Position numbers and translations under genes: made by a program | Notes under the pieces: generated by a model | What the model was told of the DNA's origin: nothing | Databases searched by the model: none | What the model saw: the letters and a program-made list of their open reading frames with translations, nothing else | Assembly: GCF_019285515.1 (NCBI RefSeq) | Contig: NZ_CP079095.1 | Span: 1,426,001 to 1,490,000 of the forward strand | DNA from: Methylococcus sp. Mc7 | Lineage (GTDB): Bacteria > Pseudomonadota > Gammaproteobacteria > Methylococcales > Methylococcaceae | DNA length: 64,000 nt | Reading direction: 5' to 3' | Shown here: one piece after another, positions 17,288 through 31,195 of the stretch | How the letters are laid out: the number at the start of each line of letters is the position of its first letter | Numbering within the stretch: the first letter of the stretch is position 1

Positions 17288-17466
17288 CGATGGGCTTCGT
17301 AAGCTCGGCGCATCTGCTCAATGCTGCTGCGGCATTCGGATATCAGGAAACGATACGCTATGCCCATCTGTCGCCGGTGAATGGGGCGGCGAAGGCGCTT
17401 GAGGGAAAGCGGTCACGATTTGGTCGCGTCGTGACCTCGGATAACCTGGAGAATTGGTCGGGGTGA
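17288..17466 (+). pseudogene. Integrase 3'-end relic beside attL
   Basis: The translation matches the last ~60 residues of the prophage integrase (30057-31136) with decay: ETIRYAHLSPVNGAAKALEG and RSRFGRVVTSDNLEN correspond to VTMRYAHLSPENVRAAVKVL and RSRFGHAVALNDLEN. The catalytic Tyr context (RYAHLSP) is kept but the Arg and HxxR boxes are gone. As in the intact copy, the gene end runs directly into the att repeat, so this is the remnant of an earlier related element in the same tRNA gene. Confidence 0.8.
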
Positions 17467-17499
17467 GAGGATTCGAACCTCCGGCCACTGCCTCCCGAA
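17453..17499. repeat. attL: 47-bp direct repeat of the tRNA-Pro 3' half
   Basis: Positions 17453-17499 are identical to 31149-31195. The repeat covers the 3' half of the tRNA-Pro gene (T arm, variable loop, anticodon-stem 3' side and part of the loop) plus two bases beyond it. After it the sequence diverges and no full tRNA can be formed here. Confidence 0.92.
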
Positions 17500-17604
17500 T
17501 CCAGCGGCCAACCAGTCATACTTTAATATTCAATGGGTTGAATCTACACGCCCCGCGCAAACGTGACTGAAGATGACCCGTAATGTCGCTTCGTGACTGA
17601 ACGT

Positions 17605-17625
17605 GGTCACGATTTGGTCACGCTG
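17605..17625. repeat. Second integrase-end relic inside the element
   Basis: These 21 bases are identical to 31084-31104, within the 3' end of the integrase gene, and largely match 17411-17425 in the first relic. No att repeat follows this copy. It suggests yet another round of insertion and deletion at this end. Confidence 0.6.
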
Positions 17626-17678
17626 GATCTGAATCGGTTCGCCCACAACGACGACCTTCGTTTACGTCGCTTGCAAGA

Positions 17679-17697
17679 ATTATCAAATTTTGATAAT
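17679..17697. promoter_or_regulatory. Palindromic operator of the toxin-antitoxin pair
   Basis: ATTATCAAA-T-TTTGATAAT is a perfect 9-1-9 inverted repeat, 32 bases before the antitoxin ATG, in an AT-rich patch. Autoregulation by ParD-ParE through such palindromes is the family rule. Confidence 0.65.
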
Positions 17698-17729
17698 ACG
17701 TGCTCTGACCCAGAAGAAGGTTCTTCCCC

Positions 17730-17990
17730 ATGCCCTTCAGCTACGCCATAGGCTCACATTTCGAGCAATTCATCCGCCAGCAAGTTCAGAGCGGCCGCTA
17801 CACCAGTGCAAGCGAAGTCGTTCGTGAAGCCCTGCGCCTGCTTGAAAGCCGCGAACGTCTGCGCCGCATTGAGCTTGAAGAGTACCGTTCCAAGATTCGT
17901 GACGGCATCGAAAGTCCTGGTGTCCCGGCCGAAGATGTTTTCACGCGCCTGGAAGCCAAGTATCAAGCTATGTTCGATCAGAAAATTTGA
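17730..17990 (+). CDS. parD: ParD-family antitoxin
   Basis: 86-residue protein with an N-terminal ribbon-helix-helix type segment (FEQFIRQQVQSGRYTSASEV) and the ParD-typical VVREALRLLESRE, followed by an acidic-basic C-terminal toxin-binding tail. It neutralises the ParE-like toxin encoded six bases downstream and probably represses the operon at the palindrome at 17679. It is at the left end of the prophage, where it would favour retention of the element. Confidence 0.88.
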   Translation: MPFSYAIGSHFEQFIRQQVQSGRYTSASEVVREALRLLESRERLRRIELEEYRSKIRDGIESPGVPAEDVFTRLEAKYQAMFDQKI

Positions 17991-17996
17991 TGCTTC

Positions 17997-18287
17997 ATGC
18001 GATGTAGATTTTCCGGCCGGGCTGAACTCGATCTCGAAGAAATCGCCGATTACATCGCCCAAGACAACCCACGCCGGGCGCTATCCTTTGTCCGAGAAAT
18101 CCGCCAGCGGTGCCGGGCCATCGCAGATTTTCCCCAGGCCGCACCCCTCCGGCCGGAACTCGGTGAAGACATCCGCATGGTGCCGATTGGCCTGTATTTG
18201 ATCTTTTACACAACCCACGCGGATCAAGTTCGGATCGAGCGCATCCTGTCCGGCTCCCGTAATCTGTCGGAAGACTACTTCACCTGA
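17997..18287 (+). CDS. parE: ParE/RelE-family toxin
   Basis: 96 residues with the ParE pattern: F(S)GRAELDLEEIADYIAQDN, RAIADFPQAAPLRPELGEDI, RMVPIGLYLIFYTTHADQVR and the ending IERILSGSRNLSEDYF. ParE toxins poison DNA gyrase; RelE relatives cleave mRNA. The long alpha-helical N-terminus and the IGLYLIFY strand favour ParE. ATG 17997 follows the antitoxin stop by six bases. Confidence 0.88.
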   Translation: MRCRFSGRAELDLEEIADYIAQDNPRRALSFVREIRQRCRAIADFPQAAPLRPELGEDIRMVPIGLYLIFYTTHADQVRIERILSGSRNLSEDYFT

Positions 18288-18320
18288 AATCGGCCCGGTC
18301 TGGACCGTCTTGTATCGTTT

Positions 18321-18869
18321 TCACCTGCAGTACAGGTCAATATTCGTATTGGCAAGGTTCCGATCATATCGGGCCAAGTGCTTTTTCCAGTAAAGGCAGC
18401 GGTCTTCTTTCTCCTTCAACTTCAGGTACCGCCTGTGCGTTTCGCTCTCCACCGGAGCGGCCGCTGTCTGAGCGGGCGGAGCCTGTTGAATGTGGATGTG
18501 ATTGTGAATCACCGTCGTCACCTGAGGCGGTGCCGGATCGCGTTCCGACCACGATCGTTCCCGGTATGGAGACACTCCGGCTTGTGGTTCGATTGGCGGG
18601 TTCTGTCTGAAAGCAGGTTGCGAAACGGCCGCTATCGGTTGAGGTGTCAGTCTCAACCAGCTCGTTAGCGATTCCATGGACTCTCTCGGCGACTTGGCGA
18701 TGTTTATAAGCCCGATCGCCACAAAGAGCGCACCGATCGCGATCGCGAAATCCCCGAGCCCTGGTCGCCGGTGCCGTCGCACCCCGCGCTCATAGGTGCT
18801 TTTTGCGTTCTCCCAGTCCGCCTTCTTCTTTTGGGACTCTCGGTACCAGTCCCGGTCATACAATCCCAT
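18321..18869 (-). CDS. MGLYDRDWYRE-type membrane protein
   Basis: 182 residues. It opens with MGLYDRDWYREsqkkk, a motif seen at the start of many small proteobacterial membrane proteins. A hydrophobic helix (FAIAIGALFVAIGLINIA) lies around residues 40-58, followed by a Pro/Gln-rich region and a basic C-terminal segment with Cys residues. The function is unknown. It is transcribed towards the toxin gene, the two stops being 34 bases apart, and away from the repressor-like genes. Whether it belongs to the phage or is cargo is not clear. Confidence 0.65.
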   Translation of the reverse strand: MGLYDRDWYRESQKKKADWENAKSTYERGVRRHRRPGLGDFAIAIGALFVAIGLINIAKSPRESMESLTSWLRLTPQPIAAVSQPAFRQNPPIEPQAGVSPYRERSWSERDPAPPQVTTVIHNHIHIQQAPPAQTAAAPVESETHRRYLKLKEKEDRCLYWKKHLARYDRNLANTNIDLYCR

Positions 18870-18941: not shown

Positions 18942-19217
18942 TCACCCGTTGGGCGATCCGCCAGCCTTGGCTAGTTTTTTTCTGGTTTCCTCCAGTTCGG
19001 GGCTGATCTGGCCGACTTCAGGGATCGTCTTTCCCGTTGTGATCCAGTAGGCGTACTCCGGCCAAAGTTTGGTCAAGGCAGTGATGTGGTCTTCATTCAC
19101 CCGCTGCTTTCCCGTCAGTAGGTTTCCCCACTTGTAAGCGGTGATCCCGGTTCGTTCCTCAAGCTCGGGGAGGGTCAAGCCGGACCAAGCTATAAGCCTC
19201 TTGATGCGATCGCGCAT
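18942..19217 (-). CDS. Small HTH repressor-like protein, copy 1
   Basis: 91 residues. A helix-turn-helix-like N-terminus (LTLPELEERTGITAYKWGNL) is followed by the family's QRVNEDHITALTKLWPEYAYWITTG. It is a clear paralogue of the protein at 19586-19864; even the 3' ends and the bases after them are alike (both finish AGGSPxG). This family occurs with prophages, and a repressor or Cro-like role is inferred. Its transcription unit would run from the promoter region near 19890. Confidence 0.65.
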   Translation of the reverse strand: MRDRIKRLIAWSGLTLPELEERTGITAYKWGNLLTGKQRVNEDHITALTKLWPEYAYWITTGKTIPEVGQISPELEETRKKLAKAGGSPNG

Positions 19218-19253: not shown

Positions 19254-19496
19254 TTATCTCTCTAAATTATTTAACAAAGATTTATATTCTCCTGAGCCGG
19301 CATAAATCTCCAGCGCGTCCGCAAACGCCAGGAGGAAGTTCTTTTCTCCTCCGGTGTATCTGTTTGCTGTTGTTCTTATCGTGTAAAGGATATCTCTAAG
19401 TCGATCGTGAAATGGGCTGCTGGACGCGTAGAACTGTTGGTACATTTCAATCGATGCGATCGCTTGTTTAGCTAGCTCGAAAACTTCAGATTTCAT
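19254..19496 (-). CDS. Hypothetical protein between the two repressor paralogues
   Basis: 80 residues, predicted alpha-helical (FELAKQAIASIEMYQQFY, NFLLAFADALEIYAG). No family is recognised. Base composition here is clearly more AT-rich than the phage structural genes. It lies between the duplicated HTH genes in the same orientation and could be part of the immunity module. Confidence 0.5.
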   Translation of the reverse strand: MKSEVFELAKQAIASIEMYQQFYASSSPFHDRLRDILYTIRTTANRYTGGEKNFLLAFADALEIYAGSGEYKSLLNNLER

Positions 19497-19585: not shown

Positions 19586-19864
19586 TCACCCTCTGGGCGA
19601 TCCGCCTGCCATGGCTAGTTGTTCCCTTTCGTGGTCCTGTTTAGGACTAACTTGACCTGCTTCGGGTAGCGTTTCCCCTGTGATGAGCCAGTAGGTGTAT
19701 TGGGGCCATTGTCTTTTGATCGCCTCGATGTGGTCCTCGTTCACTTTCTGGTGACCGCTCTCAACGTTTTTCCATTTGTACTCTTCGATTCCTGTCAGCT
19801 TCTCCAAGTCGCGTCGGCTCAACCCTTGGAAGTCTCTGATCTCTCGGATGCGGTCTTTGATCAT
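19586..19864 (-). CDS. Small HTH repressor-like protein, copy 2
   Basis: 92 residues: LSRRDLEKLTGIEEYKWKNV, then HQKVNEDHIEAIKRQWPQYT and YWLITGETLPEAGQVSP. It is paralogous to the gene at 18942. It starts 24 bases from the -35 box of the divergent phage promoter at 19888, the expected position for a phage repressor acting on the adjacent palindrome. Which of the two copies is the functional repressor cannot be told from sequence. Confidence 0.7.
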   Translation of the reverse strand: MIKDRIREIRDFQGLSRRDLEKLTGIEEYKWKNVESGHQKVNEDHIEAIKRQWPQYTYWLITGETLPEAGQVSPKQDHEREQLAMAGGSPRG

Positions 19865-19922: not shown

Positions 19923-19977
19923 CATCAGCGGATGCTGTGACGTACTGTGACGAAATGTGCTTTTAGAGGGGAGTGTC

Positions 19978-20232
19978 GTGGACTCGAATCCGATTCGTCA
20001 AGCGCTGTTAAGCCTTCAATCGCCCGCGGTGGTGCCTGACCACTTCGCCGAAATCACCGGCCTGAGCAAAGACACGGTGCGGGGCATGCTCAACAAAGGC
20101 CAGCTCCGCACCGTCAAGGTAGGCCGCCGCCGCATGGTCAACATGCTTCACGTCTGGCTGCTCTGCCTCCAAGGCATCGACCTCACCGAATTCGAACTCG
20201 ACGGTTTTGCATTGGAAGGGGAGGAAGACTGA
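19978..20232 (+). CDS. HTH-type phage regulator
   Basis: 84 residues from GTG 19978, chosen because AGAGGGGAG sits six bases upstream; GTG 19957 would be leader-like. A helix-turn-helix of the excisionase/MerR type is visible: FAEITGLSKDTVRGMLNKGQLRTVKVGRRRMVNM. It is the first gene of the rightward operon and probably an early regulator. The stop overlaps the next start (TGATG). Confidence 0.65.
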   Translation: MDSNPIRQALLSLQSPAVVPDHFAEITGLSKDTVRGMLNKGQLRTVKVGRRRMVNMLHVWLLCLQGIDLTEFELDGFALEGEED

Positions 20233-20615: not shown

Positions 20616-20616
20616 C

Positions 20617-20916
20617 ATGACCCCGCATCCGCCCATGGCACCCATGCCGTACGACATCCCCGACACCCCGGACCGCCAGACCGTCGGCGGCCTGGTCGAA
20701 CGCGTGGATCTGATCAGCGAAGACCTCGCCGGCGTGCTGAACCGAGTCAGCCTGCTCGCCACGGAATTCCCCCTGGAAACCACGCTGCTGATCAGCCAGG
20801 TGCACCTCAAAGGCACCCTGCGCCGCCTGACCCACGTCCGCGACCGCTTCCAGTTCCTGCTCGATGACGAGGCCGAGCGCCAAGCCCAGACGCATAACCC
20901 TGCGGAGGCAAATTGA
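20617..20916 (+). CDS. Hypothetical phage protein
   Basis: 99 residues from ATG 20617, one base after the preceding stop; the longer frame from 20434 is rejected because it overlaps that gene. After a Pro-rich start it is helical (GGLVERVDLISEDLAGVLN, then THVRDRFQFLLDDEAER). No family is recognised. The next gene follows after one base. Confidence 0.55.
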   Translation: MTPHPPMAPMPYDIPDTPDRQTVGGLVERVDLISEDLAGVLNRVSLLATEFPLETTLLISQVHLKGTLRRLTHVRDRFQFLLDDEAERQAQTHNPAEAN

Positions 20917-21346: not shown

Positions 21347-21734
21347 CCATGTTCCCCCACACCCCCAGGACGCGCCCTCCCTTCGCGTCACCCACCTGCA
21401 ACCCTTCCGGTCCCCTCGGCTGGGGGCGAGGCCCGGAAACCTATGATCAACCCGCTGCGCCCGAACCCCGCCGCAGTCCCCGGAGCCACCTTTCCCTGAA
21501 GGAAAACCTTTCGCAGCGGTCCTGCCGGCTTCTCCCCGGTGGGCGAGGCGTTTTTCCCGGACAGCTCGGCGGTGGGCAGAGGGATGACGGTGCAAGGCGC
21601 GGAGCGCTATCACTGGCCTGGCATCGGCGTACTGACCTCCGAGCAGCGCGAGGCCGGGAAAAGTGCCGACATGCAGCGGTAGTGACGAAAGGCCCCGGCC
21701 TTATCGCTTTGGCTCTGGCTTGTTCTTCAAACAC

Positions 21735-21808
21735 GCCGGCAGGACGCCGGCACCGACTTCAATCTAAGGCGCAGGGATTGCGCGGCCAACTCGTGTTTTC
21801 GGGAAGTA
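21735..21808 (+). repeat. Structured repeat, copy A
   Basis: Hairpin 1 is GCCGGC-AGGAC-GCCGGC (21735-21751); hairpin 2 is GCGC-AGGGATT-GCGC (21769-21783), joined by a linker containing a CTTCAATC core. The third hairpin of the unit is degenerate in this copy. Confidence 0.7.
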
Positions 21809-21959
21809 GCAGTTTTCCGTCTGCACCAGCGGCCCCGATCATCTCCCAAGCCGGCCGACCCACCGGCACCTCGCCCGACCTGAGGGTACGGGCGTCTTTT
21901 ATTCCGTGCGCGGCGGCCGTGAAAAAAGCCTTCGGCCGCCTCGCTTGTATCGAAAGGAC

Positions 21960-22035
21960 CCCGGCAGGACGCCGGGACCGATTTCAATCCAAGGCGCAGG
22001 GATTGCGCGGCTTACCCGAGCTTTTCGGAAAGTTC
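21960..22035 (+). repeat. Structured repeat, copy B
   Basis: Hairpin 1 is CCCGGC-AGGAC-GCCGGG (21960-21976), a compensatory change at the closing pair relative to copies A and C. The linker ATTTCAATCCAAG and hairpin 2 GCGC-AGGGATT-GCGC follow, then a CCGA...TCGG hairpin. Confidence 0.75.
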
Positions 22036-22066
22036 GCTCTTTCGCTCTTGCTCGTATCCAAACCAC

Positions 22067-22142
22067 GCCGGCAGGAAGCCGGCACCGATTTCAATCCAAG
22101 GCGCAGGGAATGCGCGGCCGACCCGAGCCGTTCGGAAAGTTC
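22067..22142 (+). repeat. Structured repeat, copy C
   Basis: Hairpin 1 is GCCGGC-AGGAA-GCCGGC (22067-22083); linker ATTTCAATCCAAG; hairpin 2 GCGC-AGGGAAT-GCGC (22101-22115); third hairpin CCGA-GCCGT-TCGG, also differing from copy B in the loop only. Confidence 0.75.
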
Positions 22143-22211
22143 TCACCCCGAACCCGACGCCTTTACCGCCGCCCGGCTTGCCCTCCCATTGCTTCAAGTC
22201 GAGGAGCTGTC

Positions 22212-22391: not shown

Positions 22392-22576
22392 AACCCACCC
22401 TCGACGCCACCTATCAAAGTCGCAGCCTCAACCGCCTGGCGGCCGAACGCACCGCCCTTCTGGCCAGCGTTTCCGGACTCGCCGTCCTGGCCGTCTGTAT
22501 CTTCGCCTTCGCCGAAGTCCTCGCCAGCGCCCTCTGGCTCTGGAGCGTCAATCGGGAGCTCGCCTGTGCGTACTAA
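22388..22576 (+). CDS. Small single-span phage membrane protein
   Basis: 62 residues from ATG 22388 (overlapping the preceding stop). One hydrophobic helix (LLASVSGLAVLAVCIFAFAE plus the next few residues) follows a short basic N-terminus. The size and topology suit a minor virion or assembly protein, but the position ahead of the ssDNA-binding candidate makes a different membrane role possible. The next gene starts 11 bases before its end. Confidence 0.5.
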   Translation: MKPTLDATYQSRSLNRLAAERTALLASVSGLAVLAVCIFAFAEVLASALWLWSVNRELACAY

Positions 22577-23246
22577 CCTCCGCCACTGCCCCGACTGCGA
22601 CTACCTCCAAGCCTTACCCAACGGCTGGACCGTCTGCGGCTTCAGTCTCACCGGCCCCGCTCTCGAGCTGCTCAACAGCGCCGCCCGCTTCGACTACCGC
22701 ACCCCTGTCGCCGCCTGCGCCTACCCCATCGGCGGCGGCCGTTACTCCACCGAAAGCGAGCAGATCGCCCCGGAAACCGCCGGCCTCCAAGGCGGCCTAG
22801 TCCTGCGCCGCCATGCCTTCACCCGCACCCCGCCCCAATGCTGGGACTGCCCGTACTATCGAGGCGAAGTTGAAAAGAACCCCGCGAAAAGCTGTCGGCT
22901 CCAACGTCGTCAGCGCTGGTACTGGGGACCCGGCGACAACCTCGTCATCCAGGCCGACAGCTATCGCTGTGAACCGTTGTTTCCGTACATCGACGCCCTG
23001 CGTGAAGGGATCGACCGCGACACCGGCGAACTCAGCCCCGACTACGTGGAAGCCCTAGCCTGGTTCCAGGAGTACGACCGCAGTCTCCAGGTTCAGGCCG
23101 CAAGATCGACTGCCCTTCCCGCCGGCGGCGCTGCCCAGGCCAAAGCGTCCGGGCAGTTTCCGGCGTCCAATCGCCCCATTCCTTTCCGCCGGCCCGGTGC
23201 CAATACGCGCACACCGGACAGACCGGCTGTACCCAAAAGCGCGTGA
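22566..23246 (+). CDS. Cys-rich phage protein of unknown function
   Basis: 226 residues from GTG 22566. The first part reads RHCPDCDYLQALPNGWTVC, and later TPPQCWDCPYYRGEVEKNPA followed by a further Cys, giving several CxxC-type pairs suitable for zinc or Fe-S binding. The C-terminus is Pro/Arg-rich. It is in the position where filamentous phages often keep accessory replication or regulation genes. No family is recognised. Confidence 0.5.
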   Translation: MRTNLRHCPDCDYLQALPNGWTVCGFSLTGPALELLNSAARFDYRTPVAACAYPIGGGRYSTESEQIAPETAGLQGGLVLRRHAFTRTPPQCWDCPYYRGEVEKNPAKSCRLQRRQRWYWGPGDNLVIQADSYRCEPLFPYIDALREGIDRDTGELSPDYVEALAWFQEYDRSLQVQAARSTALPAGGAAQAKASGQFPASNRPIPFRRPGANTRTPDRPAVPKSA

Positions 23247-23266
23247 AACTCAACAGGAGAAAGTCC

Positions 23267-24106
23267 ATGCAAATCGTCATCAGCGCCCCCATCCTTGGCG
23301 CCAACCGCTTCCACGTCGAAGGCGTCAAAGGCGGCAGCGTCTACATCCTTCAGCCCGCCCAGGAAGATGCCGACAATCATTTAGGCCTTCAGGTCCAGAA
23401 GTTCAACGCCCCGTACGACCTGATCGAACAGCTCAGCCAAAAGCCGTTGCCCGGTCATTACGACCTGCTCATCGACATCGAACGCGGCAGCCAGGACAGC
23501 GACAAGGAAACCGTCCTCTCCATCACCGGCAACGGCAAGCTCGACCTCGGTGCCCTCTATGAACTGTTCCACCTCGACCCCAACGCCCCGGTCAACAAAC
23601 CCAATCCGGAAAGCCAGCGCCCCCTCGCTGGCGTCATCCGCGGCCTGATCCTCAGCGCCACCCGCTACGACATGACCGACAGCGGCGGCGGCAAGGGCGG
23701 ACGTCTCTACGTGGTCCAGCCCACCTCAGGCCGCAACCCCAACCAGTTCGGCCTCGAACTCATTCGGCTGCGGATGCCCTACGACATCTACACCCAACTG
23801 CAGAGCCTGCAAGTCCCCGGCGAATACCTTATTGACGTCCAGCTTGCGAGAGGGGCCGGCGACAAAGCCCAGCTGCGGGTCACCGGCCTCAGTCCCGGCA
23901 ACCTCCTCGACAAAGCCCGGCTGCACGAGCTCTTCAAGCTCGGCAAGGACGGCCAGCCGCTCCAGCCCGGTCAGCCGGGGACTGGTGTCAGCAGCAGTGC
24001 TTCCGTTTCCGGTTCCGCTTCGGCTTCCGCGCCCAAGCCGGGCGCCACGCCAAACCCCGGCCCCGGTGCCCTGTCCGGCCCCGAACCCGCCCCGGTCCGG
24101 GCCTGA
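23267..24106 (+). CDS. Candidate ssDNA-binding protein with duplicated domain
   Basis: 279 residues from ATG 23267, which has AGGAGAAAG upstream (GTG 23243 lacks this). Two similar ~105-residue domains follow each other: PILGANRFHVEGVKGGSVYI ... YDLIEQLSQ ... KLDLGALYELFHL and LILSATRYDMTDSGGG ... YDIYTQLQS ... LLDKARLHELFKL. A Pro/Ser/Gly-rich tail ends the protein. Position directly before the coat genes is that of gpV-type ssDNA-binding proteins in inoviruses, and a tandem beta-barrel would fit. The assignment is inferred from synteny. Confidence 0.5.
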   Translation: MQIVISAPILGANRFHVEGVKGGSVYILQPAQEDADNHLGLQVQKFNAPYDLIEQLSQKPLPGHYDLLIDIERGSQDSDKETVLSITGNGKLDLGALYELFHLDPNAPVNKPNPESQRPLAGVIRGLILSATRYDMTDSGGGKGGRLYVVQPTSGRNPNQFGLELIRLRMPYDIYTQLQSLQVPGEYLIDVQLARGAGDKAQLRVTGLSPGNLLDKARLHELFKLGKDGQPLQPGQPGTGVSSSASVSGSASASAPKPGATPNPGPGALSGPEPAPVRA

Positions 24107-24160: not shown

Positions 24161-24763
24161 ATGGCCGTCTCCTCCGCTGTCCCCACCGCCCTCACCGAGG
24201 CTGCCAAGGACGGAGCGGCCATCGCCGCTGCGGGTCTGGGCTTCCTCGTCGTCATGGCAGGCTTCAAATACCTCCGGCGTGCCGCGGCTCCGAAAGCCGA
24301 TGACGTTGAAAAAGGTCTCGTCATCGACGAACGCGATCCCGAATTGCTCGGCAATGTCCGTGAGTATTTGGCCGATCGTGCCGCCCAGGCGGACAACGCC
24401 GAAAGCGACGGGACTTATGAGTATTACTACCGCAACCGCGAGGCCTTCGAAGACATCGGCGAGTTCGTCAAGAAAGGCGGCCGCCATGAATATCACGACG
24501 GCGAAGCCGGCAACGATGACGAATACGAACCAATTCAGGATGAAAAACCCGATCACAACGGCGTGTTTGCCGCCAACGATCCCGACGACACCATTAGCCC
24601 CTCATCCCGTGCCGAGCGTTATGGCGCGGACGACCATCCGGACGCGTTCGAGGACGACGAAGCCACCGAAGACGGCGAAGGCGAAGAAGAGAACGAAGAC
24701 GAAGAAGGTGAAGAACGGGCAGCCGAACCCTCCGAACCCGCCAACCGCTCGGCACAAGGCTGA
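24161..24763 (+). CDS. Coat-protein paralogue with long acidic tail
   Basis: 200 residues. Residues 1-42 (VPTALTEAAKDGAAIAAAGL, then GFLVVMAGFKYLRRA) align with the mature major coat protein encoded next (VPTDVTDALTAAKADGTTIA ... AVFRYIRKAL). No signal peptide is present. The remaining ~155 residues are extremely acidic (runs of D and E, GEEEENEDEEGEE-like) with an internal YEYYYRNREAFEDIGEFVKK segment. In ordinary filamentous coat proteins the C-terminus is basic and contacts DNA, so this tail is unusual. It may be a minor coat, assembly or decoy protein. Confidence 0.6.
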   Translation: MAVSSAVPTALTEAAKDGAAIAAAGLGFLVVMAGFKYLRRAAAPKADDVEKGLVIDERDPELLGNVREYLADRAAQADNAESDGTYEYYYRNREAFEDIGEFVKKGGRHEYHDGEAGNDDEYEPIQDEKPDHNGVFAANDPDDTISPSSRAERYGADDHPDAFEDDEATEDGEGEEENEDEEGEERAAEPSEPANRSAQG

Positions 24764-24839
24764 CCGCCATGATTCAAATTCCGGGGACTCCCGGATATTC
24801 CCGGCGCGCAAGCGTCATTCAACCTGAGAGGTAACACCT

Positions 24840-25115
24840 ATGATCCGTGCAATGAAGAAAACCGCCGGCGCCACCTACGAGTTCGTTTCGGGCGCGTGGG
24901 AACAGGTCGGTTCCGTCGTGAAGTCGACCGGCGCCAAAGCCGCAGCGGCCGGCACCGGCGCACTCGCCCTCAGCGGCAACGCCCTGGCCGCCGTGCCCAC
25001 CGACGTCACTGACGCCCTGACGGCGGCTAAGGCGGATGGCACCACCATCGCCGGCACCGTCCTCGGCGTCATCATCGCCATCGCCGTGTTCCGCTACATC
25101 CGCAAGGCCCTGTAA
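24840..25115 (+). CDS. Major coat protein precursor (gpVIII-like)
   Basis: 91-residue precursor. The mature part after ALSGNALA is AVPTDVTDALTAAKADGTTI followed by a hydrophobic helix (AGTVLGVIIAIAVF) and RYIRKAL: acidic amphipathic N-terminus, membrane span, basic DNA-facing C-terminus, the standard inovirus coat plan. ATG 24840 has GAGAGG upstream; GTG 24918 would give a more typical 24-residue signal peptide (KSTGAKAAAAGTGALALSGN) and is a real alternative. About 40 residues remain after cleavage. Confidence 0.88.
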   Translation: MIRAMKKTAGATYEFVSGAWEQVGSVVKSTGAKAAAAGTGALALSGNALAAVPTDVTDALTAAKADGTTIAGTVLGVIIAIAVFRYIRKAL

Positions 25116-25218
25116 GGCGTGGCGGTCTGCGCTGCAGAGCAGACCGCTTTCCTTTAACGATCCGGGTACCGGGTCTTGGTACCGATCCGGTTCAACCTCA
25201 CACCTTCGGAGCAGCGCC

Positions 25219-25557
25219 ATGGGCGTCCTGTATCAAGCCTACTGTCATGAGAGCGCCGACACCGTCGCCGGCCTGGTCATGGGAACCCAGCTCCATGACG
25301 GTGGCAGCTACCCCTGGTACGTCGCCGGCTACACCGTCGGCACCGCCTCGGTCGACTACCTCATCACCTATTTCAGCGGCACCCCGCCGGTGCCGCAGAC
25401 CCTCACCGTCACCGTGCCGTTAGTGTCCTGTCCGGTGGTGGGTCCGATCACCAACGCCTCCGGCCTCGCCGTCGACGACGTCACTCAGGTTTCCTGGCTG
25501 GTGGCCGCCGTGCTGCTCTCGGCCTACGTCATCAAACTCCTGCGCCGGGCGTTCTGA
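25219..25557 (+). CDS. Minor coat-like membrane protein
   Basis: 112 residues from ATG 25219 (GGAGCAGC upstream); the frame upstream of it is not used. A beta-rich N-terminal part (GGSYPWYVAGYTVGTASVDY) precedes a single C-terminal span with a basic end (WLVAAVLLSAYVIKLLRRAF), like other inovirus structural proteins. It lies in the coat operon and its stop overlaps the tiny ORF that follows (TGATG). Confidence 0.6.
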   Translation: MGVLYQAYCHESADTVAGLVMGTQLHDGGSYPWYVAGYTVGTASVDYLITYFSGTPPVPQTLTVTVPLVSCPVVGPITNASGLAVDDVTQVSWLVAAVLLSAYVIKLLRRAF

Positions 25558-25628
25558 TGGTTGCCGACTTCTATCTCCTCGCCTTGTTCATCGCCATCGT
25601 GGGGGCGGTATGGATCACCGTGTCGTAA
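25557..25628 (+). CDS. 23-residue inner-membrane minor coat candidate (gpVII/gpIX-like)
   Basis: ATG 25557 to TAA 25628: MVADFYLLALFIAIVGAVW then ITVS, essentially a single membrane span. It overlaps the preceding stop by one base and the next gene start by 19 bases. M13 gpVII and gpIX are similarly tiny (about 32-33 residues) and cap the virion. Size and position in the structural operon are the evidence. Confidence 0.5.
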   Translation: MVADFYLLALFIAIVGAVWITVS

Positions 25629-26995
25629 GGCGCATCGTTCTTTTGCTTGCGCTGCTTGGTCTGTTCGGGCCGTTTTCGGCACGGGCTGTGACGTTTCCGG
25701 GTACGGGTCAGCTCAGTACGACGATTGGTCCGGTCTATATCAAGACCGGCTGGCCGTCGGGGGGCGGCGATATTGCCATGGAAGCCCTGGGCGGTTTCCG
25801 GGCCGCTTTCACCCCGTTCAACCTCGGCTTGTCCGTGGGCACGGCGCTGGTGATGTACGGCGTGTCGAAGGGCATCAACCAGGCGGAAATGTATTTCCAG
25901 AGCGGGAAAAACGTCACGGCACCGTTCGGGGGTGACGGCTGGGTCAATGGCGACGTGCCACCGGGGTCGAGTGCCGTGGCGCAGGGGTATATCTACAACG
26001 GCACGGTGTATACCTCGAAAGCCGCCTTTGCGGCGGCGGTGTGTTTCAGCAACACATATAACGGGGTTGCTTATACTGCATCTCGGACCTTGGAGGCATA
26101 TAACCGTCCAAACGAGTTTCAGTGTGGCTGTCCGGATTATTGCAAAGCCAATCCGCAATCTCCGGACATCTGGTGGCCGACGACCGGGACATTTCCCGGC
26201 GATGGGCCGGCGACCTGTGCGGTGGGGTATGCGCTGGTTAACGGCCAGTGCATCTACGATTCCACCGGGGCGCACGGGTTCCCGCCGTGGCCTTCGAACG
26301 CTCCTCAGCCTTACGCGAGGCAGACGGGTGGGTCCTGGGGCTATCATCCCGGCTCGATCCATTATGACGGGATCGACTCGTTTTCCACCCCCGCCAGCCG
26401 GACCGGGACCGATACCCACGGGAATCCAGTGCGGGAGACCCTGACCCCGACCTCGGACGGCGGTGTCGACTACAAGCGGGAAACCCAGTCGGAGATCAAT
26501 GGCCAGCCCGCTGTTCAGACCGACAAGATTCACACCGACGCCAACGGGGTGGTGACCTCGGTCACCAGCAACGTTGCGTACAACACCAGCCTCACCAACG
26601 TGACCCAAGGCGGCGATACCGTCGTCAAGATCGACACCTCGGACCTGAACAAGGAAGCGACCCAGCTGCAGATCAAGGGGGGCCTCGACCAGATCAACGC
26701 CAAGCTGGATTGCGCCAACAAGACCACCCTCGGCTGCATCGAGCTGGGCGAGGCCGGCAACAAGACGGAGCTGCAGACCAAGGACAAGGCCGACCTGTTC
26801 CATGAGGTGTCGGTGGGCGGGGGCGGGGGCGCGGGCGCCTGTCCCAACGACCTGGTGGTGTCGTTCCTCGGCTTCCCCTACCTGGTCAGCTACGATCTCG
26901 TGTGCCGCTATGCCACCGGCATTCACTTCGTGGTGGTGGCCCTGGCCTGGGTGTCGGCCGGCTGGGTGATGTTCGGCAGTTGGAAGGGCTTGTGA
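25610..26995 (+). CDS. gpIII-like adsorption / minor coat protein
   Basis: 461 residues. Signal peptide (RRIVLLLALLGLFGPFSARA), Cys-rich N-terminal domains (FQCGCPDYCKANPQSPDIWW), a repetitive middle with TSDGGVDYKRETQSEINGQP, a Gly linker (GGGGGAGA), and a C-terminal membrane anchor (IHFVVVALAWVSAGWVMF) ending in a short basic tail. This is the architecture of filamentous-phage pIII/OrfU-type proteins, which bind the host pilus and TolA and release the virion. The receptor cannot be read from sequence; the host's type IV pilus (pilW is present at 57.4 kb) is a plausible target. Confidence 0.75.
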   Translation: MDHRVVRRIVLLLALLGLFGPFSARAVTFPGTGQLSTTIGPVYIKTGWPSGGGDIAMEALGGFRAAFTPFNLGLSVGTALVMYGVSKGINQAEMYFQSGKNVTAPFGGDGWVNGDVPPGSSAVAQGYIYNGTVYTSKAAFAAAVCFSNTYNGVAYTASRTLEAYNRPNEFQCGCPDYCKANPQSPDIWWPTTGTFPGDGPATCAVGYALVNGQCIYDSTGAHGFPPWPSNAPQPYARQTGGSWGYHPGSIHYDGIDSFSTPASRTGTDTHGNPVRETLTPTSDGGVDYKRETQSEINGQPAVQTDKIHTDANGVVTSVTSNVAYNTSLTNVTQGGDTVVKIDTSDLNKEATQLQIKGGLDQINAKLDCANKTTLGCIELGEAGNKTELQTKDKADLFHEVSVGGGGGAGACPNDLVVSFLGFPYLVSYDLVCRYATGIHFVVVALAWVSAGWVMFGSWKGL

Positions 26996-26996: not shown

Positions 26997-27272
26997 ATGG
27001 GCACCCTGGCTTCGCTCCTGATCGGTCTGGCCACCTCGCTCCCCGGCAAGGTGCTCTCGGCCTTAGGCATCGGCTGGCTGACCTTCACCGGCATCGCGGT
27101 CGCCTCCGACGCGGTCAAGAACGGCGCCTTGTCGGCCTGGGGATCGCTGCCTTCTGACATCGCCCAGGTGCTGGGCCTGGCCGGGTTCGACCAGGCGGTC
27201 GGCATCGTTCTGGGCGCCTTCGTCGCCAAGGCCACCCTGGCGGCCTTGCCTAAGCTGGGGAAACTTACATGA
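26997..27272 (+). CDS. DUF2523-type minor coat protein (gpVI-like)
   Basis: 91 residues with three hydrophobic stretches (LASLLIGLATSLPGKVL, GWLTFTGIAVA, AVGIVLGAFVAKATLAAL). DUF2523 proteins sit between gpIII-like and Zot-like genes in inoviruses and are thought to equal gpVI, which anchors gpIII at the virion tip. The start follows the gpIII-like stop by one base and the stop overlaps the Zot-like start by four. Confidence 0.8.
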   Translation: MGTLASLLIGLATSLPGKVLSALGIGWLTFTGIAVASDAVKNGALSAWGSLPSDIAQVLGLAGFDQAVGIVLGAFVAKATLAALPKLGKLT

Positions 27273-28309
27273 TCACCCTCATCACCGGGGCGCCCGGCGC
27301 CGGCAAGACCGCCTTCGTCGTCAACGAACTCGCGGCCCTGGACGGCCAGCGTCCCTTGTTCGTTCATGCCGTGCCCGGCCTGGCCTATCCCCACGAGCCG
27401 ATCTATTGCCGCTCCACCCTGTGCAGCCATTGTGCCGAGGCTCAGAAGCCCGATGAGGCGCTGTACGTGGAGGACTGGGATAAATGGGCGCCGATCGGCG
27501 CCTTGATCGTCATTGATGAAGTCCAGCGCATTTGGCGGCCGCGCATGAGCAATGCGGCGGTGCCGGAAAGTGTCGCGGCGTTGGAGACTCATCGGCATCG
27601 CGGCGTCGACTTCTACCTGATCTCGCAAGGGCCTCACCTGTTTGACATCAACGTCCGCCGGCTGGTGAGCCGCCATATCCACCTGGTTGGTAAATGGCTG
27701 TCGCGATTTTCGTACGAATGGCCGCAATGCCGCGACGATACCGACCGCGTGCATGATGCGATTAAGAAGCCGTACAAGCTCCCGTCGCGGGTCTTCGGCC
27801 AGTACAAGAGCGCCGAAGTTCACACCCCGCAGCGCCATGCCAAGCCTTTAGCTTTCTATGCGCTGCTGGGCCTCGTGCCGGTGCTGGGCGTCCTCGGCTA
27901 CCGGGTCTATATCCGCTTGCACGAATTTCAGCACCCGGACGAAGGTAAACCCGCCATCGCCCCCGCCGGTCCGCCGCCGGCCGCCACGCCCGTCCCGGTT
28001 GCGCTGCCCAGTCCCACGCCCGCGCCCAAGACGGTGCCGGATTTCCAGCCGCGGGAAGCGGGTCGGCCGGAGTCGGCCCCGGCCTATGACGGTCTTTACC
28101 GGGTCAACGCCGCGCCGATCGTCATGGGCTGCATCGGCACCCCCGACGCCTGCAAGTGCTACACCGTCAAGGCCACGGTGGCCCTGGTCGACGAAGCTTG
28201 GTGCCGCGCCTATCTGCGGCGCGAGGTGTTCTATCCCTATGAGCCCGTACCTCGCGTCCCGCACCCGGTCGCCAGCCATGCGCCCTCGACCCTGGCCGCC
28301 CAGCGCTAG
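27269..28309 (+). CDS. Zot-like / gpI phage assembly ATPase
   Basis: 346 residues. Walker A GAPGAGKT at 7-14, Walker B-like LIVIDEVQ at 79-86, a membrane span at about 192-214 (LAFYALLGLVPVLGVLGYRV) and a periplasmic Pro-rich region with a Cys-containing end (CIGTPDACKCYTVKA). gpI proteins drive virion extrusion through the inner membrane and pair with an outer-membrane secretin; no gpIV-like secretin is encoded here, so a host secretin is probably used. The Zot name comes from a cholera phage protein; toxin activity is not implied. Confidence 0.88.
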   Translation: MITLITGAPGAGKTAFVVNELAALDGQRPLFVHAVPGLAYPHEPIYCRSTLCSHCAEAQKPDEALYVEDWDKWAPIGALIVIDEVQRIWRPRMSNAAVPESVAALETHRHRGVDFYLISQGPHLFDINVRRLVSRHIHLVGKWLSRFSYEWPQCRDDTDRVHDAIKKPYKLPSRVFGQYKSAEVHTPQRHAKPLAFYALLGLVPVLGVLGYRVYIRLHEFQHPDEGKPAIAPAGPPPAATPVPVALPSPTPAPKTVPDFQPREAGRPESAPAYDGLYRVNAAPIVMGCIGTPDACKCYTVKATVALVDEAWCRAYLRREVFYPYEPVPRVPHPVASHAPSTLAAQR

Positions 28310-28405
28310 CGCCGGTGGGCGAGGACGCGCAGCGGCCGCGCACGGCCGGCGCGGGCGCGGTGTTCGGCCGGGCAATAACCGGCGTTAGGCAGCAGGGTGA
28401 GGGGC

Positions 28406-28432
28406 ATCAGACGTTCCTGTAACACGTCTGAT
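28406..28432. other. Candidate phage replication origin / hairpin
   Basis: A perfect 9-bp inverted repeat, ATCAGACGT (28406-28414) and ACGTCTGAT (28424-28432), with a 9-base loop. It lies in the 237-base gap between the Zot-like and replication genes, next to a very GC-rich palindromic stretch (28311-28385). Rolling-circle origins and packaging signals take this form. A terminator is an alternative, but there is no T-tract. Confidence 0.4.
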
Positions 28433-28546
28433 CTAAGGGGATACAAAGCCCTATTCGAGCACAGTAAGACACAAAGTAATCGAAATTTTGGTTTTGAAAG
28501 ATTTTTTGAATGATCGATGGTTAAGCCGAATAAAGGGAGAAAGCAC

Positions 28547-29836
28547 ATGGCCGACTTAAAGCTGTTCGAACGTTACTCCTATGCCGGTCTGTCCAAGGGG
28601 ACAGAGCCCGACCCCAAGGGCCGCATTTTCAAATCTCCCCGTATCACCTGGGACCTATCGCATATCCTGATCTGCGGCACCTTCGTCGACACGGTGCGGC
28701 AGAACTATTTCGGCCAGCTCAAGCGGGACCTGTACGAAGCGGTCAAAGCTGCGGCCGAAGGCACCGGCGATTTCCAGTTTTTCCCCGGTCAACACCCCTG
28801 GGCCGCCCGGAGAATGGGCAAGGTCTGCGGCTACCGGTACGCCCTCCAGGACAACACCCGTGGTGTCATTCTCCTCATCGGTAGCTACTACCAGGCCGAA
28901 ACCGACCTGCTCGAGGGCAAGCCCGGCCATCACCTGAAAATCGAGCTCTCGCCCCATCTCCTGGCTGCCTGTAACTCTCAGGCGATCCAGACCGAACTGG
29001 ACAGCTTCGCGCATGGCCTCATGACCGCCCCCGAACCCGCCGGGGTCGCCATTCATCTGGCGGTGGACGTTCAAGGCTGGTCCCCCGATCCGCACTTCCA
29101 GGACAGGTTTATCACCCGTGCCCGTATCGCAAGGCGCTATGACGGCATCTCGGACGCCGAGTTCGATGGCCTGTCCGATGTCTCCGTCTGCTACGGCAAG
29201 CAGGCTGCCGAGAGCCTCACCTTCGGTAAGGCGGCTTCCCTTCAGCTCTGCCTCTATGACAAGTCCAAGCAGATCGTCCACGCCGACAAGGTGGACTTCA
29301 TGCAGGGGCAATGGGGCGAGTTCACCCAAGGCGAATTCGATCCCACTCAGCCGGTTTGGCGGGTGGAAGCCAGATTTCATCATTCGGTGGTCAACGAAAT
29401 CGGCGAAGGCTTCGGCAAGCAGCTCAAGCGCTGGGTGGACGTCGTGCCGCATCTCACCGACATGTGGCGCTATGCTCTGACCATCAATCGGGCCAAGGAT
29501 GGCACCTACATTGACCCCGTTTGGCAACTCCTCCGCGACGATCCCGAGTTCCGGGTCCCGGCCCAGGGCCACAAGATCGTGCGTAAAAAAAAAGAGGACG
29601 TGTCCGCGGTCGCCCGCAACTTCGGCAACGTGCTCGGCAATCTCATCTCGCTTTATGCCCGTGAGGGCCGGAACGCCGATTACATCCTGATCCAGGTCAA
29701 GCGCCTTTCGATCTATCCCAAGCTGCTGGAACATCTCGCCCGTCGGGGCCAAGCCAAGGGCCAGGTGGAGCAGGATTTGAAGGACTTCATCCGAGAGGGG
29801 ATATGGAAGCGGCGAACCTTGGGGAAAGCCGCATGA
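28547..29836 (+). CDS. Phage replication initiation protein (gpII/RstA-like)
   Basis: 429 residues from ATG 28547 (AGGGAGAAAG upstream; ATG 28517 is less likely). Conserved features of filamentous-phage/plasmid rolling-circle initiators are seen: AIHLAVDVQGW, SLQLCLYDKSKQIVHAD, VWRVEARFHHSVVNEIGEG. Such enzymes nick the origin and remain attached through a tyrosine. A run of nine A (29585-29593) encodes KKK and is a potential slippage point. The stop overlaps the next start (ATGA). Confidence 0.8.
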   Translation: MADLKLFERYSYAGLSKGTEPDPKGRIFKSPRITWDLSHILICGTFVDTVRQNYFGQLKRDLYEAVKAAAEGTGDFQFFPGQHPWAARRMGKVCGYRYALQDNTRGVILLIGSYYQAETDLLEGKPGHHLKIELSPHLLAACNSQAIQTELDSFAHGLMTAPEPAGVAIHLAVDVQGWSPDPHFQDRFITRARIARRYDGISDAEFDGLSDVSVCYGKQAAESLTFGKAASLQLCLYDKSKQIVHADKVDFMQGQWGEFTQGEFDPTQPVWRVEARFHHSVVNEIGEGFGKQLKRWVDVVPHLTDMWRYALTINRAKDGTYIDPVWQLLRDDPEFRVPAQGHKIVRKKKEDVSAVARNFGNVLGNLISLYAREGRNADYILIQVKRLSIYPKLLEHLARRGQAKGQVEQDLKDFIREGIWKRRTLGKAA

Positions 29837-30246
29837 CCTTGCCGCTTCTTCTCAGTCTCGAGGAAGCCGCCAAACAACTCGGGGGCGTCTCTTCCCGGAC
29901 CGTTCGCCGCATGATTGAGGCTGGCGAAATCTCGGCCGTGAAAGTCCGTGGACGGCTTACCGTGCCGCTCGCATCTCTCCATGACTGGGTAGCCGGACAA
30001 CTCCAGACCCCGCATAATTCGAGTCGCGCGGGGCATGTGTCTAAGGAGAACATCACATGCCTTACAAACGAAAAGATAGTCCCATTTGGTGGGCGTCGTT
30101 CGTCGACGCAAGCGGATGCCGAATTAGGCGCTCGACTGGGACTGAAGACCGAAAAGAAGCCATTGCCATCGAAGCAAGGTGGAAACTCGAAGTCCACCGG
30201 CAAAAGCATTGGGAGGAGCAGCCGGCTCGGACCTTCGGGGAGCTGA
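29833..30246 (+). CDS. Excisionase-like HTH protein
   Basis: 137 residues from ATG 29833, overlapping the Rep stop. Residues 5-55 are a MerR/excisionase-type winged helix: LSLEEAAKQLGGVSSRTVRR, MIEAGEISAVKVRGR, VPLASLHDWVAGQ. The last ~60 residues are read out of frame within the integrase gene (190-base overlap) and have low-complexity basic character, so the original stop was probably nearer 30055. It is likely the directionality factor for the adjacent integrase. Confidence 0.65.
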   Translation: MTLPLLLSLEEAAKQLGGVSSRTVRRMIEAGEISAVKVRGRLTVPLASLHDWVAGQLQTPHNSSRAGHVSKENITCLTNEKIVPFGGRRSSTQADAELGARLGLKTEKKPLPSKQGGNSKSTGKSIGRSSRLGPSGS

Positions 30247-31136
30247 TACTTGCGTATCTCGACGGACCGAGCCGGGAGAAGCGAAGCCGGGAGCGTGATG
30301 AATATTCCGCGAAGCGTCTTTATCCAATGTTTCAGGGACGGGAACTCGGCAGTTTGACCGCTGCCGATGTGAGGGCATACATCGCCAGCCGGCGAAGGGA
30401 CGGGGTGGCTTCCGCCACGATCAATAAGGAAATTGGGTTATTCCGGGCGGCGTTGAACTGGGCAAGGCGCGAACTCGAGTGGAACGTACCGAATCCGTTT
30501 ACTGGCCGGAAACTGAAAGAGCCGGAAGGGCGGATTCGTTGGATTACTCGCGAGGAAGCCGCAAGGCTGATCGAAGCTGCGAGGAGTGAACCTAAGGCGT
30601 TGCATGTTGCTGACTTCATCCGGCTTGGATTGCATACCGGGATGCGGAAAGGCGAAATGTTGGGCCTCGAATGGAGCCGGGTAGACCTGGGGGCGAACTT
30701 GGTTTACCTCGGATCCGTCAATCAGAAAAACGGAAAGCTGGGAAGTGTGCCGCTCAATAGCCAAGCACGCGAGGCAATACTATCACGAGCACGATTCCGA
30801 GCTTCCCGCTGCCCGGGGTCGCCGTGGGTATTCGCTCATGAAGATGGGACGCGGATCGGCTCGATTCGGACGGCCTTCGATGGGGCCTGCAAGAGAGCAG
30901 GGGTACACGACTTTCACCCGCACGACCTGCGGCATACTTGTGCTGCGTGGTTGGTGCAGGCCGGTGTATCGATTCGGGAGGTTGCCGAGCTGTTGCGGCA
31001 TTCCGACATCAGGGTAACGATGCGTTATGCCCATCTCTCACCGGAGAATGTGAGAGCGGCCGTGAAAGTGCTTGAGGAAAACCGGTCACGATTTGGTCAC
31101 GCTGTGGCCTTGAATGACCTTGAGAATACGGGGTAA
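30057..31136 (+). CDS. int: Phage tyrosine integrase
   Basis: 359 residues with all five catalytic positions in order: Arg197 (GMRKGEM), His289 and Arg292 (HPHDLRHT), His315 (LLRHSD), Tyr324 (RYAHLSP). A core-binding SAM-like domain covers residues about 58-140. AAGGAGAAC precedes the ATG. The stop is 12 bases from the 47-bp att repeat and the intact tRNA, the classical int-attR layout. It catalyses integration into tRNA-Pro. Relics of its 3' end occur at 17288 and 17605. Confidence 0.95.
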   Translation: MPYKRKDSPIWWASFVDASGCRIRRSTGTEDRKEAIAIEARWKLEVHRQKHWEEQPARTFGELILAYLDGPSREKRSRERDEYSAKRLYPMFQGRELGSLTAADVRAYIASRRRDGVASATINKEIGLFRAALNWARRELEWNVPNPFTGRKLKEPEGRIRWITREEAARLIEAARSEPKALHVADFIRLGLHTGMRKGEMLGLEWSRVDLGANLVYLGSVNQKNGKLGSVPLNSQAREAILSRARFRASRCPGSPWVFAHEDGTRIGSIRTAFDGACKRAGVHDFHPHDLRHTCAAWLVQAGVSIREVAELLRHSDIRVTMRYAHLSPENVRAAVKVLEENRSRFGHAVALNDLENTG

Positions 31137-31148
31137 CTGTTTGATTTG

Positions 31149-31195
31149 ATTGGTCGGGGTGAGAGGATTCGAACCTCCGGCCACTGCCTCCCGAA
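31149..31195. repeat. attR: 47-bp direct repeat within tRNA-Pro
   Basis: Identical to 17453-17499. It spans the 3' half of the intact tRNA-Pro gene, so insertion at the other end left a partial tRNA copy (attL) and kept this one functional. Confidence 0.92.

What the first reader, a model, noticed from the sequence alone, without database searches (positions are those of the whole stretch)
17453..31195. Apparently complete filamentous prophage with its own tRNA-Pro integrase
Seen: 47-bp perfect att repeats, an intact tyrosine integrase, and the inovirus gene order (ssDNA-binding candidate, coat, gpIII-like, DUF2523, Zot/gpI, Rep) with no obvious broken gene. Known: most filamentous phages integrate through host XerCD at dif; tRNA-targeting tyrosine integrases are less common. 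Inference: an active or recently active phage with several early genes I cannot assign, in a host group where few inoviruses are described. At 13.7 kb it is also large for the group.
Basis: partly seen in the sequence, partly recalled or inferred. Interest (0 to 1): 0.75.

Follow-up and report, generated by a model that had tools for sequence, protein, structure and literature searches.

The report
Pf-type filamentous prophage in Methylococcus
This is an apparently intact filamentous-phage genome sitting in a proline tRNA gene of a methane-eating bacterium; comparing it with relatives exposed a small DNA hairpin beside its replication gene that recurs in Pf1-like phages, looks like their replication start, and also marks a point where these phages swap their coat genes.

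Summary
The prophage is real: a 47-bp perfect repeat (17453-17499 / 31149-31195) made of the 3' part of an intact tRNA-Pro(CGG) encloses open coat, TspB/gpIII-like, DUF2523, Zot, Rep, Xis and Int genes. The host is a Methylococcus. By its Rep it is Pf1-like (33% to PA0727, active-site Tyr kept); its Zot is not. Congeneric prophages keep SSB (65-82%) and Rep (80-92%) but carry other virion genes and integrases. tRNA integration, 13.7 kb and modularity are normal for Pf-type phages.

New here: a hairpin (28406-28432) upstream of rep. Its core, loosened after a first look, lies upstream of 79 of 79 testable rep genes in IMG/VR contigs chosen by Rep alone (11 of 1,433 random windows), and of 6 of 6 phage records fetched afterwards. 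The stem shows compensatory changes. It is most likely the rolling-circle origin, nicked in the loop as in CTXphi. It also bounds virion-module exchange: in Pf records all four combinations of flanks occur around an identical hairpin. Phage activity, nicking and Rep-driven exchange are untested.

The parts
17323..17454 (+). relic of an older, related integrase (C-terminus only), outside attL
   Evidence: 17377-17454 is 78% identical to the end of the resident int (D2); similarity to the G001 integrase region from 17323
17453..17499 (.). attL (47-bp core)
   Evidence: identical to 31149-31195
17730..17990 (+). ParD antitoxin
   Evidence: PF03693 E 8e-15
17997..18287 (+). ParE toxin of a toxin-antitoxin pair
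   Evidence: PF05016 E 2e-18
18321..18869 (-). protein of unknown function
   Evidence: phrog_13107 E 1e-5 on the first 29 aa only
18942..19217 (-). XRE-type repressor A
   Evidence: phrog_147 E 7e-19; homologues in 8 relatives
19254..19496 (-). small unknown protein
   Evidence: no family
19586..19864 (-). XRE-type repressor B, paralogue of A
   Evidence: phrog_147 E 3e-24
19957..20232 (+). Cox/Xis-like helix-turn-helix regulator
   Evidence: phrog_575 E 1e-8
20617..20916 (+). conserved small protein of unknown function
   Evidence: 71% and 83% in two congeneric prophages
21347..22211 (+). main intergenic region: conserved block (21343-21444) and three 96-nt repeats (21715-22142)
22566..23246 (+). 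conserved Cys-rich protein of unknown function
   Evidence: 81% and 85% in two congeneric prophages; no family
23243..24106 (+). ssDNA-binding protein candidate made of two similar domains
   Evidence: phrog_22642 in two stretches; its first half matches the second domain of a relative at 33%, E 1.6e-12; single-domain homologues elsewhere
24161..24763 (+). coat-domain protein with long acidic C-terminal tail
   Evidence: PF05356 E 9e-10, residues 2-41
24840..25115 (+). major coat protein
   Evidence: PF05356 E 1e-17
25219..25557 (+). third coat-like protein (sub-threshold)
   Evidence: PF05356 E 0.003, below the cut-off
25610..26995 (+). gpIII/TspB-like minor coat (adsorption) protein
   Evidence: phrog_13221; NF041109
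26997..27272 (+). DUF2523 minor coat protein
   Evidence: PF10734 E 1e-16
27269..28309 (+). Zot/gpI assembly ATPase, not of the Pf lineage
   Evidence: PF05707 E 1e-20, phrog_197, best phage record Aeromonas MBa-2020a 38%
28406..28432 (+). predicted rolling-circle origin ori(+): hairpin, 9-bp stem, 9-nt loop TCCTGTAAC; predicted nick between G28419 and T28420; also a virion/replication module boundary
28547..29836 (+). rolling-circle initiator Rep (Pf1 PA0727 type)
   Evidence: 33% to Pf1 PA0727, YDK aligned to SIYNK; phrog_1159
29803..30246 (+). excisionase-like HTH protein overlapping rep and int
   Evidence: PF12728, TIGR01764
30057..31136 (+). tyrosine integrase, tRNA-Pro site
   Evidence: PF00589; 87% identical open 359-aa homologue at the same tRNA in G001
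31149..31195 (.). attR, inside tRNA-Pro
31151..31227 (-). tRNA-Pro(CGG), intact
   Evidence: ARAGORN, Rfam tRNA 65.5 bits

Best explanation
A structurally intact, Pf-type temperate inovirus of Methylococcus. Int (with Xis) inserts it at, and can remove it from, the 3' half of tRNA-Pro(CGG), which stays intact because attP carries the same 47 nt. Two XRE repressors and a Cox-like regulator probably hold the lysogenic switch. On induction Rep nicks the hairpin at 28406-28432, in the loop between G28419 and T28420, and starts rolling-circle replication; the two-domain SSB coats the single strand, and Zot with the coat proteins extrudes the filament. The replication core (SSB, hairpin, Rep) is a unit onto which different virion sets and integrases are attached; the hairpin is one of the attachment points. 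Shown by sequence: att sites, gene content, conservation and covariation of the hairpin, reassortment of its flanks. Inferred: nicking, replication, assembly, excision.
For: att and tRNA. Genes. Rep is homologous to Pf1 PA0727, the proven Pf initiator (PMC4863604, passages); its Tyr237 aligns with the SIYNK Tyr and is invariant in 21 of 21 homologues. Hairpin core upstream of 79 of 79 rep genes in 78 IMG/VR loci (2 genes skipped for lack of upstream DNA) vs 11 of 1,433 random windows, and in 6 of 6 phage records fetched after the pattern was fixed. Covariation: 70 double-changed cells vs 32.6 in shuffles, score 0.316 vs 0.110, 0/500 each. In 151 relatives the model lies beside 20 of 21 rep matches of 300 aa or more, the 21st cut by a contig end; 17 of the 20 were in the model's alignment, 3 (G087, G102, G115) were not, and those 3 keep TGT in the loop, one with a compensatory change in the inner stem. 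CTXphi's initiator nicks between G and T in an ori(+) hairpin loop (PMC4439123, passages). Module exchange.
Against: No circular form, virion or nick was observed. This Rep matches no Pfam family; 4 of 21 homologues reach Rep_trans, best E 9e-4. The search core was loosened after seeing the same loci: the first, stricter core gave 45 of 79. The invariance of TGT and CACG in alignment A4 is imposed by that pattern. Two of five covariation measures do not exceed shuffles (double-changed pairs 5 vs 5.0; further pair types 15 vs 15.2). The 136 nt around the hairpin fold no better than shuffles (z -0.95). The two outer pairs are unpaired in 26 and 33 of 52 sequences, and 19 sequences of one clade have a different inner stem. 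Structures of Rep and SSB were never modelled (server busy).
Confidence: 0.85

Rival explanations
1. The hairpin is not the origin but a transcription terminator for zot, a Rep operator or a packaging signal.
For: It lies between zot and rep; filamentous phages have packaging hairpins (recalled).
Against: No T-run follows the stem in the window. It is kept with each of three virion modules upstream, whereas a packaging signal should follow the virion genes. An additional operator role is not excluded.
Confidence: 0.12
2. A decayed or domesticated prophage that can no longer excise.
For: A decayed rep fragment lies elsewhere in this genome (G000:C1:568394-568990, one stop), and integrase remnants lie at this tRNA here and in G002.
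Against: The core genes here are open and full length; att copies are identical; an 87% identical open integrase sits at the same tRNA in G001.
Confidence: 0.2
3. Module junctions at the hairpin arise by ordinary homologous recombination in a short conserved stretch, not by Rep.
For: In the Pf quartet the hairpin is the only near-identical stretch next to two divergent flanks, so any exchange would map there.
Against: Only about 28 nt are shared there, very little for homologous recombination (recalled), and the site is the predicted nick-join site.
Confidence: 0.45

Closest known systems
Pf1/Pf4 phages of Pseudomonas aeruginosa (Inoviridae, Primolicivirus)
   Same: PA0727-type Rep with the catalytic YxK; order coat A, minor coat, Zot-position gene, Rep, Int; tRNA-targeting integrases, HTH excisionase; exchangeable structural genes PA0723-PA0726' over conserved PA0719-0721 and PA0727 (Fiedoruk 2020, passages); the same hairpin
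   Different: Rep only 33% identical; best Pf Zot listed 29%; two-domain SSB; two repressor paralogues; tRNA-Pro site, not among the five Pf sites named in the abstract passage
IMG/VR contig IMGVR_UViG_3300024924_000010 (L083)
   Different: host unknown; SSB match weaker (37%)
CTXphi ori(+) with RstA
   Same: initiator nicks between G and T of an ori(+) hairpin loop (PMC4439123, passages)
   Different: CTXphi ori(+) is 167 bp with several stem-loops and needs HU (same passages); no sequence comparison made here
Congeneric Methylococcus prophages G002 L023/L024, G001 L025-L029
   Same: Rep 80-92%, SSB 65-82% where held; same hairpin in the 6 of 7 with upstream DNA (L026 is cut)
   Different: virion sets A, B or C; integrases beside tRNA-Gln, -Lys, -Val or -Pro

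Membership tests
Inoviridae (filamentous phages) | small major coat protein with inovirus coat domain | tested here: met
   PF05356 E 1e-17
Inoviridae (filamentous phages) | Zot/gpI morphogenesis ATPase | tested here: met
   PF05707 E 1e-20
Inoviridae (filamentous phages) | filamentous virion with circular ssDNA | not testable with these tools
   needs culture and microscopy
Pf1-like inoviruses (shared replication module) | PA0727-type Rep with catalytic Tyr | tested here: met
   33% over 421 aa, YDK aligned to SIYNK; Tyr invariant in 21 of 21
Pf1-like inoviruses (shared replication module) | own tyrosine integrase next to rep, tRNA attachment site | tested here: met
Pf1-like inoviruses (shared replication module) | conserved hairpin upstream of rep | tested here: met
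   this feature was defined in this work
genus Primolicivirus (Pf1 itself) | Pf-lineage Zot and structural genes | tested here: not met
   Zot best records are non-Pf (38%); Pf 62-2 29%
Rep_trans rolling-circle initiators (PF02486) | match to the family model | tested here: inconclusive
   no match for this Rep; 4 of 21 homologues match, best E 9e-4
Rolling-circle ori(+) | site-specific nick by Rep in the hairpin loop | not testable with these tools
   predicted from the conserved TGT and the CTXphi nick

The most novel reading that the evidence does not exclude
The rep-proximal hairpin is the universal ori(+) of Pf1-like inoviruses and at the same time a site-specific recombination hinge: Rep nicks and rejoins at this loop in co-infected cells, so that whole virion modules are swapped onto a conserved replication core in one step. 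This would explain the reassortment of structural lineages in Pf phages and in Methylococcus prophages.
Probability: 0.4. Interest if true: 0.78.

Novelty: new variant of a known kind. Interest (0 to 1): 0.6.

Why it matters
Pf phages are a model for chronic filamentous infection, yet in the passages read their ori(+) is mentioned without a position. The hairpin gives an exact nick prediction that one oligonucleotide cleavage assay can test, in phages recorded from Pseudomonas, Synechococcus and methanotrophs. It also offers a simple physical reason for the mixing of inovirus coat and replication genes, and a 40-nt marker (model R1) that also hit beside an integrase with no rep gene detected. 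For methanotrophs it shows that 3 of 6 Methylococcus genomes carry relatives of this phage.

Tried and rejected
Rejected: that 13.7 kb or a tRNA integrase makes it exceptional. Rejected: that the three 96-nt repeats are a host repeat family; the query has one match in the own genome. Led nowhere: single-protein scans of IMG/VR with Zot and Rep (no relatives; alignments worked); PDB sequence searches with Rep and SSB profiles (no credible match); Rfam (only the tRNA above its cut-off); the alignment of the conserved intergenic block, not used because two rows were on the wrong strand and one was the wrong stretch; the 'unrelated upstream' filter (0 of 586 pairs), uninformative because its threshold lay below the aligner's background (0.57).

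Results against or limiting. One search's count (172 of 177) includes duplicates and loci selected by the motif and is not used; its five misses were L014, L015, L017 (found by the model) and the decayed own copy (L030, L061). The core was loosened between (45 of 79; 79 of 79) after looking at those loci. Model R1 was built from A4, which holds 17 of the 20 genome sequences it later found. For some searches only part of the first-look candidates was scored (150 of 583; 43 per genome, stricter filters). Of 32 model hits at E <= 0.01, 20 lie beside a rep match of 300 aa or more, 1 beside a rep fragment, 1 at a contig end, 1 beside an integrase without rep, and 9 (E 2.4e-4 or weaker) beside no rep match; of those 9 only L379 and L381 were opened. 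One congeneric contig, L028, aligns with the window from 28314, left of the hairpin (75%), so its left flank is not foreign; its virion genes are cut off. The flanks of window and L027, both virion set A, are not alike just left of the hairpin (0.63), so the flank does not follow the set perfectly. The four-gamete test uses 126 loci, motif-selected ones included, with single-linkage types: 1, 2, 3, 3 and 0 quartets at thresholds 0.70 to 0.90, and 0 at ten shifted positions; graded coding DNA may make the controls less sensitive. The Pf quartet was first seen (9 of 27 records with a Rep match inspected). att repeats were found for 5 of 11 loci tried.

Literature: motif strings were searched; 'TGTAACACG' with 'filamentous phage' gave 0 papers; the 20 of 134 papers listed are unrelated by title. 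The listings show no paper about this hairpin by title or abstract start. Passages only were seen of PMC4863604, PMC4439123, PMC7549136, PMC7047154, PMC10011098 and PMC6813254. Subscription papers, including the Pf1 genome paper (Hill 1991, seen only as a citation), could not be read, so an earlier description is possible.
Full report
What was checked. The tRNA-Pro(CGG) at 31151-31227 is intact; the repeat covers it from the anticodon loop to its 3' end and the prophage lies on the 3' side, the usual layout for a tRNA integrase (established knowledge). Just outside attL lies the C-terminal end of another integrase, 78% identical to the resident one over 78 nt, so this tRNA was used before. In G001 the same tRNA holds an 87% identical open integrase; in G002 a broken integrase with scraps of xis and rep; in G004 a small element with an open integrase (see the end).

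Host and relatives. The window lies in a 4.0-Mb chromosome. The closest named Rep relatives are contigs of a Methylococcus MAG, whose lengths coincide with contigs of G001, which the tool lists as same genus; so the host is a Methylococcus (inference). Among 151 genomes 19 carry a Rep match, 3 of the 6 Methylococcus genomes among them. G002 has two elements, G001 five rep-bearing contigs, and the own genome a decayed rep fragment with one stop at G000:C1:568394-568990, close to the same kind of tRNA cluster where G002 has a full prophage.

Which phage it is. Rep is 33% identical to Pf1 PA0727 over 421 aa. PA0727 was shown to be the Pf initiator, needing a Tyr in a SIYNK motif (PMC4863604, passages); the aligned residue is Tyr237 of this Rep, and it is invariant in 21 of 21 homologues. 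Zot, in contrast, is nearer to an Aeromonas phage (38%) and gut inoviruses (up to about 33%) than to the Pf record listed (29%). The replication and integration side is Pf1-like; the virion side is not.

Modules. Across Methylococcus prophages SSB and Rep are 65-82% and 80-92% identical to ours, while Zot is 56% (L027), 25-30% over part of its length (L024, L025), or without a match at E 1e-3 (L023). All-against-all comparison gives three virion sets: A (window, L027), B (L023, L025, and L031/L032 in other genera) and C (L024, L029). Two main kinds of integrase combine with them independently. The integrases lie beside tRNA-Pro, -Gln, -Lys, -Val and, in another genus, -Leu; att repeats were found for 5 of 11 loci tried. 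Fiedoruk and co-workers described this pattern for Pf phages: five integrase types over two structural lineages, with PA0719-0721 and PA0727 common to both (passages). Roux 2019 also calls inovirus genomes modular (passage). The modularity is therefore known in kind.

The hairpin. DNA alignments of the window with five congeneric elements (L023, L024, L025, L027, L029) begin within 28405-28408 on the rep side; a sixth, L028, begins at 28314. That point is the 5' edge of a hairpin, ATCAGACGT-TCCTGTAAC-ACGTCTGAT (28406-28432), seen upstream of rep in the window and in six of seven further Methylococcus elements, the seventh (L026) being cut. In IMG/VR contigs chosen only by Rep similarity a first core, C[CT]TGTAACACG, lay upstream of 45 of 79 rep genes. 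Inspection of the rest showed hairpins with other stems, and the loosened core [CT][CT]TGT..CACG lies upstream of 79 of 79 (78 loci; two genes skipped), with 22 further copies in 1.61 million strand-bases and in 11 of 1,433 random 420-nt windows. Many of these loci are close relatives, so 79 is not 79 independent events. The loosening was post hoc; the later tests are 6 of 6 phage records fetched afterwards and three genome rep genes that escape the regex but were found by the covariance model (G087, G102, G115). These three read CATGTAGCACG, CATGTAGCACG and CCTGTAGCACA; the last has ATG opposite CAT where others have ACG opposite CGT, a compensatory change.

Structure. In 52 distinct sequences (A4) ten columns never vary, but seven of these are imposed by the search pattern. 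The stem changes on both sides in 70 cells against 32.6 +/- 4.1 in shuffles, the covariation score is 0.316 against 0.110, and pairing is 80% against 21-41% when partners are slid; two other measures do not exceed shuffles. A second clade of 19 sequences keeps the loop and an outer stem with one more spacer base. Pf1, Pf 62-2, five further Pseudomonas records and two Synechococcus records (nine of nine inspected, of 27 with a Rep match) have the core 61-70 nt upstream of the annotated rep start. The model has one hit in the own genome and lies beside 20 of 21 rep matches of 300 aa or more in 151 relatives; 17 of those 20 were in its own alignment.

Function of the hairpin. A conserved loop with a covarying stem next to a rolling-circle initiator is what an ori(+) looks like. 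The best experimental parallel is CTXphi, whose initiator nicks between the guanine and thymine in the apical loop of an ori(+) hairpin (PMC4439123, passages); by analogy the nick here is predicted at G28419^T28420. That it is kept with three different virion modules speaks against a packaging signal, and the lack of a T-run against a terminator. Confidence that it is ori(+): about 0.85. Nicking was not shown.

The hinge. In six P. aeruginosa Pf records the 28-nt hairpin is identical while the left (zot-side) and right (rep-side) flanks occur in all four combinations: L249; L395 and L396; L394; L397 and L398. Left flanks are 0.98-1.00 identical within and 0.53 between types; right flanks are 1.00 within one type, 0.78 within the other and 0.44-0.56 between. 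Over 126 distinct loci four-gamete quartets appear at the hairpin at four of five clustering thresholds (1, 2, 3, 3, 0) and at none of ten shifted positions. Exchange therefore does happen at this site. Whether Rep catalyses it, as rolling-circle plasmid initiators are reported to do (recalled, no call), or short homology suffices, is open; I give Rep catalysis about 0.4.

Other features. The SSB candidate has two similar domains in the window and in four other elements of the same GTDB family that could be read in full (L023, L024, L031, L032), whereas four relatives in another family of the order have one. An SSB role rests on position and weak PHROG evidence. Three consecutive ORFs carry or resemble the inovirus coat domain, the first with a long acidic tail. 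At the same tRNA-Pro in G004 two 46-nt cores 3.3 kb apart enclose an open integrase, an excisionase-like gene and a G2P-type Rep (PF23343 E 1e-29, phrog_2969), with no coat or Zot match: a minimal element or satellite using a related integrase.

Verdict. The prophage is a new, well-preserved variant of the Pf type, ordinary in integration and size. The hairpin found on the way is the part worth following up. No paper about it turned up in the searches listed, which cover open-licence papers only.

Noticed in passing
L045:3395-6756 (G004, same tRNA-Pro): A 3.3-kb element between two 46-nt tRNA cores with an open integrase, an excisionase-like gene and a G2P-type Rep (PF23343), but no coat or Zot match: a minimal integrative element or inovirus satellite candidate.
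   Followed up: partly
window 21715-22142: Three 96-nt repeats (76-86% to the reference copy), each folding into small hairpins, in the main intergenic region; one match in the own genome. Role unknown.
   Followed up: partly
window 21343-21444: Block starting at the end of an ORF, 91-96% identical in congeneric prophages, able to form a TTCCGG...CCGGAA hairpin; candidate packaging signal or minus-strand origin.
   Followed up: partly
window 24161-25557: Three consecutive ORFs with or resembling the inovirus coat domain, the first with a long acidic tail; all three have matches in the same order in L027.
   Followed up: no
G000:C1 about 1408200-1443400 (left of the prophage): The region between the tRNA-Met neighbourhood and the prophage appears inverted relative to G002-G005, with one end at or near the integrase relic next to attL.
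   Followed up: partly
L393:6115-6384 (G000:C1:1402115-1402384): A 79% homologue of repressor A about 0.4 kb from a tRNA-Phe: trace of another related prophage in the same genome.
   Followed up: no
L376:1501-1540 (G101): Match to the ori hairpin model (E 3e-6) beside an integrase but with no rep detected: a rep-less remnant or a satellite-like element.
   Followed up: no
window 16505-17125: 206-aa protein of glycine-aspartate-rich repeats (RTX-like by eye, no family search done) just left of the prophage.
   Followed up: no
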